Assembly: GCA_003702525.1 (NCBI GenBank)
Contig: REGJ01000006.1
Span: 1 to 49,745 of the forward strand
Length of the DNA stretch: 49,745 nucleotides
From: Candidatus Nitrosopumilus sp.
GTDB taxonomy: Archaea; Thermoproteota; Nitrososphaeria; Nitrososphaerales; Nitrosopumilaceae
Direction: 5' to 3'
Shown: positions 25,711-49,745 of the stretch, piece by piece
Layout: each line of letters starts with the position of its first letter
Position numbering within the stretch: position 1 is the first letter of the stretch
Made by a program: the position numbers and the translations under genes
Notes under the pieces: generated by a model
The model's database searches: none
What the model was told of the DNA's origin: nothing
Seen by the model: only the letters and a program-made list of their open reading frames with translations

Positions 25711-26115
25711 GTGGACAGAATAAAGCGTCTTTCATACGAAGTCTTGGATAATCACAAGTCTAAATTCGGTGAAGATTTTGCTGACAACAAAAAAGTTCTA
25801 GATCAAGTTTCAATTGTCCGCTCAAAGGGATTAAAAAATGAGATTGCAGGTTACATTACAAACTATATCAAAAAAGAGATTAGAGAACAAAAACAAAAAC
25901 AAGCACAAGCCTCCAAAGCTCAAGAACAACTAGCTCAAGCAGAACCTGAACCAGTTGAGGAAACTCCTGTGGAAGAGACTGTCGCTGAAGCAACTCCTGA
26001 AACAACTGAAGCACCTGCTGCTGAAGCAACTCCTGAACCAGAAACTCCTGTTGAAACAACTGAAGCACCTGCTTCTGAAGCAACTCCTGAAACAACAGAA
26101 GAGAAGTCTGAATAA
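25711..26115 (+). CDS. rps17e: Ribosomal protein eS17 with long acidic repeat tail
   Basis: Residues 1-62 match archaeal eS17: DRIKRLSYEVLDNHKSKF, FADNKKVLDQVS, and LKNEIAGYITNYIKKE. This core is about as long as the whole protein in other archaea. Residues about 75-134 are a Pro/Glu/Thr/Ala tail with repeats of the ATPETTEAPA type, coded by near-identical 30-48 bp units. GTG start. The tail should be disordered and negatively charged on the 30S surface; its function is unknown. Confidence 0.9.
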   Translation: MDRIKRLSYEVLDNHKSKFGEDFADNKKVLDQVSIVRSKGLKNEIAGYITNYIKKEIREQKQKQAQASKAQEQLAQAEPEPVEETPVEETVAEATPETTEAPAAEATPEPETPVETTEAPASEATPETTEEKSE

Positions 26116-26156: not shown

Positions 26157-26930
26157 ATGATTACTGTAAAACTTGTTGGAGGTGCCAAAAAATCATTTTC
26201 AACAGAAAAGTTGGAACTTGAAAAATCTAATATCACAATTACAGAATTACTTGATGCATTATTGGAAAGAAAACCAGACGATTCCCCAAAACTTGACACT
26301 GAAAATATCTTGATTGCCGTAAATGGTGTCGACTCTTCAGCACTTGATGGAAAATCAACTGTGATCAAAAATGATGATGTTGTCAGTATCATTCCTGTGA
26401 TTCATGGAGGTGCATCAAAGAAACTGCTCTGCAAGATTGCATCAAAACAGATTCAGGTTGTCCAAATCAAAGGTAAAAGTGACATTGATGTAAAATTCCT
26501 TGATAATCTAAGAGAAAAATTTCCTAAAATCCAACTTCAAGCAGTATCAAGCAAATTTGTACTCAATGATTCTCATCTCAAAAAAATATTATCTCTGTCA
26601 CTAGAGTCTCAAAAAAATGATGTTCTACTATCAAACAAACTTGAAACTGATATTTTGATGCGCTTTGCAATATCAAAACAAATCTCAACTGCAATTATTT
26701 CTGCAGGAATTAAACCAAAAACTGATTTTCTGTTAATTGCAATTGGAAGCAAAGCTAATCTTGATTCGTTGTACAAAGAATTGTCTGAATATGCCATTCC
26801 GTTGTTTTCAAAAAGTAACGAGGCATTCTTGAAAAAGTCTTTCAATATATCAAAAAAACAACTTGATTCTGTTTATTCCAAAAACGCACTAGAAGATATT
26901 CTTGTTGAAAAGGCAGCAGTTCTACTCTGA
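26157..26930 (+). CDS. MoaD/ThiS ubiquitin-like domain fused to a Cgi121-like KEOPS domain
   Basis: 257 aa. Residues 1-85 form a beta-grasp MoaD domain (MITVKLVGGAKKSF ... ILIAVNGVDSS) ending IIPVIHGG, with the diglycine at 84-85 that is normally the free C-terminus. Residues about 90-257 resemble Cgi121 of the KEOPS complex (IQLQAVSSKFVLNDSHLKKI, then LETDILMRFAISKQISTAI), which binds tRNA ends for t6A synthesis. The neighbouring THUMP and Sua5 genes fit tRNA modification. The Cgi121 assignment is by pattern only. Confidence 0.78.
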   Translation: MITVKLVGGAKKSFSTEKLELEKSNITITELLDALLERKPDDSPKLDTENILIAVNGVDSSALDGKSTVIKNDDVVSIIPVIHGGASKKLLCKIASKQIQVVQIKGKSDIDVKFLDNLREKFPKIQLQAVSSKFVLNDSHLKKILSLSLESQKNDVLLSNKLETDILMRFAISKQISTAIISAGIKPKTDFLLIAIGSKANLDSLYKELSEYAIPLFSKSNEAFLKKSFNISKKQLDSVYSKNALEDILVEKAAVLL

Positions 26931-27443
26931 CATACTGCGTTTAGTCTTTTCTGTACTCAAAATATCTGACTTTTTTAGAACGGAAATCCCAGTCTTGTTA
27001 CCTAGAATCTCAATTAGAACGACCTTCTCAGGAAACTCTAATGATACCTGACTCTTTATCTTGCTTGCAATTTTTTTAATGATATCTTGGCTTGAAATGT
27101 CTGAATTTCTTTTCTCAATTGATATTCTGTATTTTTCATCTTTGGAAATATTCTCAGATAGTTCTTCAACAACTTTTTCTATCTCTTCAATTTTTGTCTC
27201 AACTATTCTTTGAATCGGAATGATTCTCAAACAATATCTAACACTCCAAGGCTCATCAAGAAGCATCTCCTTGATTTTTCTTACCACTTCTACTGGTTCT
27301 AACTTTGTCTCTGCAGTAAGTATGCCTGACATGCTTGTGATTGTAACTTTGGGATCAGAATCTCCAAATTCATCTAAAAATCCCCTCAACTCCTCTTCTG
27401 TTTCAGGTTCTAGGTGTCTTGCACAAGTAACTATTAGATTCAT
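26922..27443 (-). CDS. THUMP-domain RNA-binding protein (Tan1/THUMPD1-like)
   Basis: 173 aa. The N-terminal ferredoxin-like part starts MNLIVTCARHLEPETEEEL, typical for Tan1-like proteins. The THUMP core covers about 60-165 (WSVRYCLRIIPIQR, then KYRISIEKRNSDIS, FPEKVVLIEILGNKTGISVL). There is no catalytic domain. In eukaryotes Tan1 helps acetylate C12 of tRNA. It overlaps the Sua5 gene by 4 bp and converges on the MoaD-Cgi121 gene with a 9-bp 3' overlap. Confidence 0.85.
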   Translation of the reverse strand: MNLIVTCARHLEPETEEELRGFLDEFGDSDPKVTITSMSGILTAETKLEPVEVVRKIKEMLLDEPWSVRYCLRIIPIQRIVETKIEEIEKVVEELSENISKDEKYRISIEKRNSDISSQDIIKKIASKIKSQVSLEFPEKVVLIEILGNKTGISVLKKSDILSTEKTKRSMSE

Positions 27444-28036
27444 ACTTTGAAAATCTCCTCTTTACTTAAAGAACCCTCTCTGATAATTTTGATCTCACCA
27501 TCTTCTATCTGGATAATGGTTGATTCTCCTTTGCTTGTAATTGTTCCCCCATCAACAAAGACATCATAATTTTCTATACTTTTGATACATTCAGCAGGAT
27601 CAAAAAATGATGATTGTCCTGAAACATTTGCACTTGTTCCAATTAGGCAATGACATTTTTCTAACAATGCTAATGTGCATTCATGATTTGGAACTCGTAA
27701 TCCAATCTTGTCTGAAAGGTTTAACGATTCTTTTAGTTTAGAATCTTTAAGTTTCAAAAGAATTGTTAGATTGCCTGGCCAAAACTTTTCAGCAAGTTTT
27801 TCTGAAATCTCATCAAACTCTGCAATCTGATTGGCAATCTCTTTGGAGTAAACTAGAACTGGAAATGGTTTTGAAAAGTCTCTTGACTTTATCTCATAAA
27901 CTTTTTTTGCAGACTCTTTATTGTAAGGGTTGCATCCTATACCGTAAACAGTGTCTGTTGGAAAAACAACAATTCCGCCATCCTCAATTATTTTGGATGC
28001 CTGTTCTATTCCTTGCTTGTCACAGTTTACTTTCAT
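27440..28036 (-). CDS. Threonylcarbamoyl-AMP synthase (Sua5/YrdC/TsaC)
   Basis: Makes threonylcarbamoyl-AMP from threonine, bicarbonate and ATP, the first step of t6A37 in ANN-decoding tRNAs. 198 aa, a YrdC domain without the longer Sua5 C-terminal domain. IVVFPTDTVYGIGCNPYN and KSRDFSKPFPVLV carry the nucleotide-binding lysine-rich pocket; LIGTSANVSGQ is the signature near residue 135. It is followed on the same strand by the THUMP gene (4-bp ATGA-type overlap). Confidence 0.94.
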   Translation of the reverse strand: MKVNCDKQGIEQASKIIEDGGIVVFPTDTVYGIGCNPYNKESAKKVYEIKSRDFSKPFPVLVYSKEIANQIAEFDEISEKLAEKFWPGNLTILLKLKDSKLKESLNLSDKIGLRVPNHECTLALLEKCHCLIGTSANVSGQSSFFDPAECIKSIENYDVFVDGGTITSKGESTIIQIEDGEIKIIREGSLSKEEIFKV

Positions 28037-37089: not shown

Positions 37090-37869
37090 ATGACTGATAT
37101 ACTTAGCAAGAAATTAGAATCAAAGCTAGACAAAAAACTAATTTCAAAAGCTAAAAGAAAAACTTTGGATGATGGTTTCAAAAAAGGCAAAGTGGTAAAC
37201 GAAGTCTTGGACAAACCAACTGTCATGACGTTATACAAAATGATTACCGACCACATCATTGCATATGTTAACGGTGCAGTAAGTGCTGGAAAAGAATCTG
37301 TTTTGTTTTGGGGAGTTGATGAAAACGATTCAGATGTTGCATTAAAAATTTATCTTGTTAGTACTTCTAATTTTAAAAAACGAGAGCCCTATATCCTTGG
37401 TGACCCTCGATTCTCAAATGTCAAAAAGGGTACAAAAAATCTAGTCTATCTCTGGGCAAAAAAGGAATACCGAAACCTAACTCAGTGCTTTGAGGCTGGA
37501 ATTCCAGTCCCAAAACCCCTCTATGTGACAAATAATGTATTGGCCATGGAGTTTGTGGGTGAGAAGGGTGCTCCTGGAAAATCATTGCTTGATTCACAAG
37601 TAGATGAGAATGACTATCAACAAGCCATCCAAATTATTCAGGACATGTATGAAAATGCAAAACTGGTCCATGGCGATTATTCAGAGTATAACATATTCAA
37701 AACTGAAAACGGATTGGTAGTTTTTGATTTGGGTTCTGCAGTTGATTTGAGGCACCCTAATACTCAAGAATTTCTTAAGAGAGACATTAATAACATTACA
37801 AGGTTCTTCAAAAAAAGAGGAGTTTCTGTTGAGGATCCAGATCAATTATTTGAGGATATTGTAAAATGA
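37090..37869 (+). CDS. RIO-type atypical protein kinase (Rio1)
   Basis: 259 aa. The RIO fold is seen in AGKESVLFWGVDENDSDVALKIY (ATP loop and Lys), FVGEKGAPGKSL (hinge), LVHGDYSEYNIF (catalytic Asp-x4-Asn) and VVFDLGSAVDL (metal Asp). Archaeal and eukaryotic Rio1 acts in late small-subunit maturation. The next gene, a KH protein that corresponds to the Dim2/Pno1 assembly factor, overlaps it by 4 bp, so both are likely assembly partners. Confidence 0.93.
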   Translation: MTDILSKKLESKLDKKLISKAKRKTLDDGFKKGKVVNEVLDKPTVMTLYKMITDHIIAYVNGAVSAGKESVLFWGVDENDSDVALKIYLVSTSNFKKREPYILGDPRFSNVKKGTKNLVYLWAKKEYRNLTQCFEAGIPVPKPLYVTNNVLAMEFVGEKGAPGKSLLDSQVDENDYQQAIQIIQDMYENAKLVHGDYSEYNIFKTENGLVVFDLGSAVDLRHPNTQEFLKRDINNITRFFKKRGVSVEDPDQLFEDIVK

Positions 37870-49455: not shown

Positions 49456-49506
49456 GAATGACTTTATGAAAAATATGAAATTAAATTTAAAAAATAAGGT
49501 GATTTG

Positions 49507-49745
49507 ATGGCAAAGAAAAAAGATGAATTAGTTGATGAAGCAGCAAAAATCAAAGCAGAACTTGATGCACTAAAAAAGAAAAAAGAGGTACTAGATTCCA
49601 AGCCAAAAAAATCTAAATCAAAGAAAGCAGAAGCAAAACCTGCAAAGAAAGCAGAAGCAAAACCTGCAAAGAAAGCAGAAGCAAAACCTGCAAAGAAAGC
49701 AGAAGCAAAACCTGCAAAGAAAGCAGAAGCAAAACCTGCAAAGAA
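49507..49745 (+). CDS. Lys/Ala-rich repeat protein, partial (cut by window end)
   Basis: ATG 49507 opens a frame still running at 49745. The start MAKKKDELVDEAAKIKAELD and ALKKKKEVLDSK is a coiled-coil-like charged helix; then KPKKSKSKKAEAKPAKKAEA begins a run of perfect octapeptide repeats KKAEAKPA. Such tails resemble histone H1-like DNA-binding tails. A following domain, if any, lies outside the window. Confidence 0.7.
   Translation, partial: MAKKKDELVDEAAKIKAELDALKKKKEVLDSKPKKSKSKKAEAKPAKKAEAKPAKKAEAKPAKKAEAKPAKKAEAKPAK
49621..49740. repeat. Five perfect tandem 24-bp repeats (plus a partial sixth)
   Basis: Each unit encodes Lys-Lys-Ala-Glu-Ala-Lys-Pro-Ala. Units are at 49621, 49645, 49669, 49693 and 49717, with a 5-bp start of the next. 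Identity at the DNA level, including wobble positions, indicates recent expansion by slippage. The array runs off the window. Confidence 0.95.

What the first reader, a model, noticed from the sequence alone, without database searches (positions are those of the whole stretch)
26157..26930. MoaD/ThiS ubiquitin-like domain fused to a Cgi121-like domain, with an internal diglycine
Seen: a beta-grasp domain ending IIPVIHGG at residues 78-85, where MoaD proteins stop, runs directly into a C-terminal domain with Cgi121-like segments. Known: MoaD and archaeal SAMPs work through a free C-terminal Gly-Gly; Cgi121 is the tRNA-binding subunit of KEOPS. Inference: either the beta-grasp part is a scaffold inside KEOPS, or the protein is cut after GG to release a sulfur carrier or modifier and a KEOPS subunit from one gene.
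Basis: partly seen in the sequence, partly recalled or inferred. Interest (0 to 1): 0.68.

Follow-up and report, generated by a model that had tools for sequence, protein, structure and literature searches.

The report
Ubiquitin-like sulfur carrier fused to Cgi121
In ammonia-oxidising archaea one gene encodes a ubiquitin-like protein joined to a tRNA-modification (KEOPS) subunit; the fusion was published in 2010, but relatives split and rejoin the two halves right after an almost unchanging Gly-Gly, which suggests that the protein is a precursor cut there to release both parts.

Summary
The 257-aa ORF at 26157-26930 is a ThiS/Urm1-type ubiquitin-like (Ubl) domain ending ...IIPVIHGG at residue 85, followed by the genome's only detected Cgi121. 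The fusion is not new: Makarova & Koonin (2010, PMC2948915) reported it in all Thaumarchaea then available, with its ribosomal-protein-S17 neighbour.

New here is comparative evidence about the GG. Most other families of the class have two adjacent genes, with the Ubl ending exactly HGG-stop (31 of 43) or HGG plus 1-7 residues. Nitrosopumilaceae are fused, one Nitrososphaeraceae-like genus is mixed, and at least three species inside the fused family are split again within 7 codons after HGG. HGG is kept in 75 of 76 distinct fusions, while the linker after it is the most variable stretch. In 73 of 76 genomes of the family every detected Ubl domain is fused to something, nearly always Cgi121 or the E1 enzyme, and all 28 Ubl-E1 junctions read also keep GG. 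JAMM proteases and TtuA are present in the window's own genome; E1 is in its relatives.

Best reading: a precursor cut after GG, probably by JAMM, releasing a sulfur carrier/modifier and Cgi121. Precedents are MoaX, SAMP1-MoaE and DRMoaD-MoaE. Cleavage is inferred, not shown.

The parts
26157..26411 (+). Ubl (beta-grasp, ThiS/MoaD/Urm1-type) domain, residues 1-85
   Evidence: Pfam ThiS 1.2e-10, Urm1 1.1e-4; profile matches Urm1/SAMP-like solved chains 2k9x, 2g1e, 2ax5, 2pko
26403..26411 (+). His-Gly-Gly codons (residues 83-85): former C-terminus of the Ubl and proposed cut site after Gly85
   Evidence: HGG in 75 of 76 distinct fusions and all 44 distinct split Ubls; mean entropy 0.25 bits over residues 78-85
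26412..26471 (+). linker and start of the Cgi121 half, residues 86-105: the most variable stretch
   Evidence: mean entropy 2.08 bits against 1.33 for residues 1-77 and 1.46 for 106-257
26472..26930 (+). Cgi121 domain (KEOPS subunit), residues 106-257 plus stop codon
   Evidence: Pfam CGI-121, NCBIfam NF011465 1.7e-46; solved Cgi121/TPRKB chains matched
26679..26708 (+). predicted tRNA CCA-pocket residues Q175, I176 ... G184
   Evidence: align with Gln71, Ile72 and Gly80 of M. jannaschii Cgi121; invariant in the aligned fusions
25711..26115 (+). upstream neighbour: ribosomal protein S17e with a long Glu/Pro/Ala-rich tail
   Evidence: Pfam Ribosomal_S17e 1.5e-20; same position in 58 of 61 f1 loci
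26922..27443 (-). convergent neighbour: THUMP-domain protein, overlapping the end of the fusion gene by 9 nt
   Evidence: Pfam THUMP 5.2e-9; 60 of 61 f1 loci
27440..28036 (-). neighbour: Sua5/TsaC (L-threonylcarbamoyladenylate synthase), supplies the KEOPS substrate
   Evidence: Pfam 1.4e-53, TIGR00057 9.1e-51; at least 52 of 61 f1 loci

Best explanation
The gene encodes a two-protein precursor. The N-terminal Ubl (Urm1/SAMP/TtuB type) is made joined through Gly85 to the KEOPS subunit Cgi121. A protease, most likely one of the conserved JAMM metalloproteases, cuts after HGG. That frees the C-terminal glycine, which the ThiF-type E1 can adenylate and convert to a thiocarboxylate, so that the Ubl can donate sulfur to the tRNA thiolase TtuA and/or modify proteins. 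The released Cgi121, with a short N-terminal extension, joins KEOPS and recruits tRNA by its CCA end for t6A synthesis. Shown by sequence: the domain identities, the near-invariant GG, repeated fusion and fission at GG, the lack of a free Ubl in most genomes, and the presence of E1, JAMM and TtuA in relatives (in the incomplete own genome only JAMM and TtuA were found). Inferred: the cut itself, the identity of the protease, and the acceptor of the sulfur.
For: HGG kept in 75 of 76 distinct fusions although the following 20 residues are the most variable part. In split relatives the Ubl stops at HGG or 1-7 residues later. Inside the fused family three species are split again at this point with usable start codons: TGA-TTG in G028, ATGA overlap in G297, ATG within the HGG codons in G106; one f3 genus (g28) is mixed. 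In 73 of 76 family genomes no Ubl frame shorter than about 220 aa was found. Ubl-E1 fusions also keep GG, 28 of 28 in a scan that did not require it. JAMM with intact E, HSHP, S and D signature in own and related genomes; E1 in 17 of 18; TtuA in own genome. Residue after GG is Ser or Ala in 59 of 76, as Ser in MoaX. Precedents: MoaX must be cut after its second Gly (PMC4326299); HvJAMM1 cuts SAMP1-MoaE exactly after GG (PMC4443979); DRJAMM cuts DRMoaD-MoaE (PMC8832034); CsJAMM cuts CsSAMP precursors (PMC6043591).
Against: No peptide or protein evidence of a cut. No E1 was found in the window's own, 88.6% complete genome. One fusion (G271) has lost GG. Fusion has persisted across a whole family, which would also fit a function of the joined form. 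A strongly divergent free Ubl could have been missed by the PF02597 profile.
Confidence: 0.64

Rival explanations
1. Uncut scaffold: the Ubl domain stays attached and serves as a docking or regulatory domain of KEOPS, for example bringing E1, TtuA or a THUMP enzyme to the same tRNA; GG is conserved as an inherited surface feature or turn.
For: The fusion is maintained in nearly the whole family; neighbours are tRNA and ribosome genes; one fusion without GG exists (L059).
Against: Does not explain why the halves are separate genes in most other families and have been separated again inside the fused family exactly after HGG, or why GG rather than the linker is fixed.
Confidence: 0.2
2. Regulated switch: the uncut fusion is an inactive or altered KEOPS subunit, and JAMM cutting activates KEOPS in response to conditions, so the control matters more than the supply of Ubl.
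For: HvJAMM1 reverses inhibition of MPT synthase by covalently joined SAMP1 (PMC4443979); drJAMM and its substrate rise under oxidative stress (PMC8832034).
Against: Species with split genes have no such control; nothing here shows that the attached Ubl inhibits.
Confidence: 0.1
3. Relic: the Ubl half is no longer used; the fusion is a harmless loss of a stop codon.
For: The G271 fusion lost its GG and no E1 was found in that incomplete genome.
Against: HGG, N56, D74 and other Ubl residues are invariant over fusions down to about 40% identity to the window protein; a relic would not keep HGG in 75 of 76.
Confidence: 0.04

Closest known systems
Ubl-Cgi121 fusion of Thaumarchaea (Makarova & Koonin 2010, PMC2948915)
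   Same: The same protein family, the same S17 neighbour; the authors suggested SAMPylation control of KEOPS or coordinated function.
   Different: Their text treats the fusion as conserved in all Thaumarchaea then available; here most other families of the class have the genes separate, fusion is reversible, and the GG was tested across both states. The passages read do not discuss cutting after GG in this protein.
MoaX of M. tuberculosis and other MoaD-MoaE fusions (PMC4326299, PMC8832034)
   Same: Ubl fused N-terminally to its partner protein with an internal GG; the cut after the second Gly is required for function.
   Different: The partner is MoaE (molybdopterin synthase), which uses the Ubl directly; Cgi121 is not known to use a Ubl.
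HvJAMM1 acting on SAMP1-MoaE (PMC4443979)
   Same: An archaeal JAMM protease cuts a linear Ubl fusion precisely after GG, in cells and in vitro.
   Different: That fusion was artificial in Haloferax; the JAMM of Nitrosopumilus has not been tested.
Ubl/ubiquitin precursors of Caldiarchaeum (PMC6043591)
   Same: Ubl made with residues after GG that a JAMM-family protease removes; comparable short tails occur in split relatives here (HGGMVGV, HGGSPKPA, HGGCL).
   Different: The extension there is a short tail, not a whole protein.

Membership tests
Cgi121 (PF08617 / NF011465) | Profile match over most of the domain above the curated cut-off | tested here: met
   PF08617 26.7-27.7 bits (cut-off 25); NF011465 158-164 bits (cut-off 40)
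Cgi121 (PF08617 / NF011465) | CCA-binding pocket residues (Gln71, Ile72, Gly80, Met60 in M. jannaschii) | tested here: inconclusive
   Q175, I176, G184 match and are invariant; Met60 corresponds to T164
Cgi121 (PF08617 / NF011465) | Binds Bud32 and tRNA within KEOPS | not testable with these tools
   Needs biochemistry or a complex model
ThiS/MoaD/Urm1 ubiquitin-like carriers | Beta-grasp profile match ending in Gly-Gly | tested here: met
   ThiS residues 8-85 to profile end 76/76; Urm1 2-85 to 96/96
ThiS/MoaD/Urm1 ubiquitin-like carriers | Free C-terminal glycine in the encoded protein | tested here: not met
   GG is internal in the window's gene; it is terminal in 31 of 43 split relatives
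ThiS/MoaD/Urm1 ubiquitin-like carriers | Activated by a ThiF-type E1 | not testable with these tools
   An E1 gene is present in 17 of 18 surveyed genomes but none was found in the window's own incomplete genome; activation needs an assay
GG-processed Ubl fusion precursors (MoaX type) | Internal GG conserved across fusions | tested here: met
   75 of 76 distinct fusions
GG-processed Ubl fusion precursors (MoaX type) | Candidate processing protease in the genome | tested here: met
   Prok-JAB proteins in all 18 surveyed genomes, own genome included
GG-processed Ubl fusion precursors (MoaX type) | Cutting after the internal GG demonstrated | not testable with these tools
   Needs proteomics or a biochemical assay

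The most novel reading that the evidence does not exclude
Most Nitrosopumilaceae have no free-standing Ubl gene and obtain their Ubl pool mainly by cutting fusion proteins at an internal GG, Ubl-Cgi121 and possibly Ubl-E1, so that a tRNA-thiolation/SAMP-type carrier and a t6A KEOPS subunit are made one-to-one from one gene.
Probability: 0.5. Interest if true: 0.65.

Novelty: already known. Interest (0 to 1): 0.48.

Why it matters
The architecture is published, but the comparative pattern turns a 2010 remark into a specific prediction: in ammonia-oxidising archaea, which are very abundant in the ocean, the Ubl sulfur carrier would be released by proteolysis from a KEOPS subunit. If true, it ties two tRNA modification pathways (2-thiolation and t6A) together at fixed stoichiometry and gives JAMM proteases a maturation role in these archaea.

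Tried and rejected
A first guess of mine that the kinase gene at 37090-37869 is Bud32 was wrong: it matches Pfam RIO1 at 4.2e-53 (the wrong guess stands in notebook entry 1). GG loss tracking E1 loss (G271) was considered, but that genome is 82% complete and other genomes with HGG also gave no E1 hit, so it is not used as evidence. A first scan of Ubl-E1 junctions required GG in its pattern and so proved nothing; it was repeated without that requirement, one stricter attempt being too narrow. Cgi121 matches with long open frames outside the class were checked for a fused Ubl; none had one, and L281 has a separate Ubl upstream.

Full report
WHAT IS THERE. The ORF at 26157-26930 (+) encodes 257 aa. 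Residues 8-85 match ThiS (1.2e-10), 2-85 Urm1 (1.1e-4) and 117-253 CGI-121 (6.4e-6) in Pfam, all over the curated cut-offs. The C-terminal half alone matches NCBIfam 'KEOPS complex subunit Cgi121' at 1.7e-46. It is the only Cgi121 match in the held genome (1.28 Mb, 64 contigs, 88.6% complete). Profile searches of solved structures give Urm1/SAMP-like chains for the first half and Cgi121/TPRKB chains for the second. The CCA-pocket residues of M. jannaschii Cgi121 Gln71, Ile72 and Gly80 (PMC7718258) correspond to Q175, I176 and G184, invariant in the aligned fusions; Met60 corresponds to T164. The closest named relative, 99% identical, is from 'Nitrosopumilus sp. GoM_MAG4'.

ALREADY PUBLISHED. 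Makarova & Koonin (2010, PMC2948915) reported the fusion in all Thaumarchaea then available and the neighbouring S17 gene, and noted a Ubl-E1 fusion in Thaumarchaeota. Full-text searches found no other paper on the Cgi121 fusion in the open-access library; most subscription papers are not in that library.

CONTEXT. S17e lies upstream on the same strand in 58 of 61 f1 loci and 28 of 29 f3 loci. A convergent THUMP gene (60 of 61 f1 loci) and Sua5 (52 of 61) lie downstream; many loci were held with short flanks, so these are lower bounds. Sua5 makes the threonylcarbamoyl-AMP used by KEOPS (established knowledge), so the gene sits in a t6A neighbourhood.

THE TEST OF THE GG. A protein search of 400 genomes of the class gave 348 with a match. 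In f1 the match usually runs the full length without a stop, while in most other families it breaks in two or contains a stop. The DNA shows that most of those families have two adjacent genes. All 44 distinct split Ubls carry HGG. Leaving out L213, the Ubl stops immediately after HGG in 31 of 43 and 1-7 residues later in the other 12. In L213 (G282) the Ubl is instead fused after HGG to a phosphoribosyltransferase domain, followed by a separate Cgi121 gene. Of 76 distinct fusions 75 carry HGG; the exception is L059 (G271). In the first alignment of 58 fusions, mean column entropy is 0.25 bits for residues 78-85, 2.08 for the next 20 residues, 1.33 for residues 1-77 and 1.46 for 106-257.

FUSION IS REVERSIBLE. 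A quick maximum-likelihood tree of 120 Ubl+Cgi121 sequences puts the f1 sequences in one clade (support 99) with three split species nested inside: G028, G297 and G106. One f3 genus (g28) is mixed. The tree needs at least 9 state changes, 5 of them forced by strong branches. At the three nested splits the DNA shows TGA followed directly by TTG (G028), an ATGA stop-start overlap (G297) and an ATG lying within the HGG codons (G106). The tree has no bootstrap and contains long branches, so the number of events is approximate; the nesting inside f1 is the firmer part. Some of these genomes are assembled from metagenomes, but three independent splits all falling within 7 codons after HGG are hard to blame on sequencing error.

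NO FREE UBL. In 18 genomes (17 of them single-contig) and in 76 genomes of the family (75 at least 95% complete plus the window's own), ThiS-type hits above the cut-off lie in a ~245-320 aa frame (Cgi121 fusion; 419 in G133), in a ~438-498 aa frame (Ubl-E1 fusion; 814 in G133) or, in G139, in a 226-aa MoaD-MoaE fusion. Only three of the 76 have a short Ubl frame: G028 and G106, whose Cgi121 fusion is split, and G142, whose E1-type Ubl stands alone. The f3 and f2 genomes do hold free Ubls. A strongly divergent Ubl could be missed by this profile, and several genomes gave only one hit. A scan for E1 genes that did not require GG found 28 with a Ubl in frame, and all 28 have GG at the junction. 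E1 was found in 17 of 18 surveyed genomes, the window's own excepted. JAMM-type proteins were found in all 18, two or more in 17, with the E / HSHP / S / D signature where read. The window's genome has TtuA with its LIM and PP-loop domains.

READING. A Urm1/SAMP-type Ubl is activated on its free C-terminal glycine (established knowledge). With E1 and TtuA widespread and no free Ubl gene, an internal GG must be freed if the pathway runs. Uncut linear Ubl-MoaE fusions are inactive and are cut after the second Gly in M. tuberculosis (PMC4326299) and by JAMM proteases in Haloferax and Deinococcus (PMC4443979; PMC8832034). CsJAMM cuts the SAMP precursors of Caldiarchaeum (PMC6043591). The residue after GG is Ser or Ala in 59 of 76 fusions; in MoaX it is Ser. 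I put 0.64 on a cut precursor, 0.2 on an uncut scaffold, 0.1 on a regulated switch and 0.04 on a relic.

LIMITS. No protein data could be examined. JAMM is the likely protease by precedent, not by test. Sulfur transfer and protein modification are both possible uses of the freed Ubl, and nothing here separates them.

Noticed in passing
L213:971-2369 (G282:C62): The Ubl next to Cgi121 is fused after HGG to a phosphoribosyltransferase domain (Pfam Pribosyltran 3.7e-16); Cgi121 follows as a separate overlapping gene.
   Followed up: partly
L059 (G271:C77): A Ubl-Cgi121 fusion in which HGG is replaced (LHCSAF), in a genome where no ThiF-type E1 was found (82% complete).
   Followed up: partly
L100:448-1851 (G044) and other Ubl-E1 loci: A second Ubl is fused to the N-terminus of the E1 (ThiF) in f1, f3 and one f2 genome, always with LPAV(A/S)GG at the junction; the f2 genome G067 has it as a separate gene ending AGGNSKGYGYG.
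   Followed up: partly
25711-26115: Ribosomal protein S17e carries a long repetitive Glu/Pro/Ala/Thr-rich C-terminal tail after its ~60-residue core.
   Followed up: no
37090-37869: RIO1-type kinase in a cluster with a DUF424 gene upstream and a KH-like gene downstream; not a KEOPS gene.
   Followed up: partly
G000:C49, C59, C61: The second JAMM-type gene appears three times in the held assembly, twice on other contigs with the same score, possibly assembly duplicates.
   Followed up: no
L183:3988-4998: A copy of the start of the Ubl-Cgi121 gene lies just upstream of the complete gene, with masked bases between; L004 shows a similar short upstream match.
   Followed up: no
49464-49745: At the window's edge an open minus-strand frame consists of a repeated AFFAGFAS unit, so the DNA there is a short tandem repeat.
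   Followed up: no
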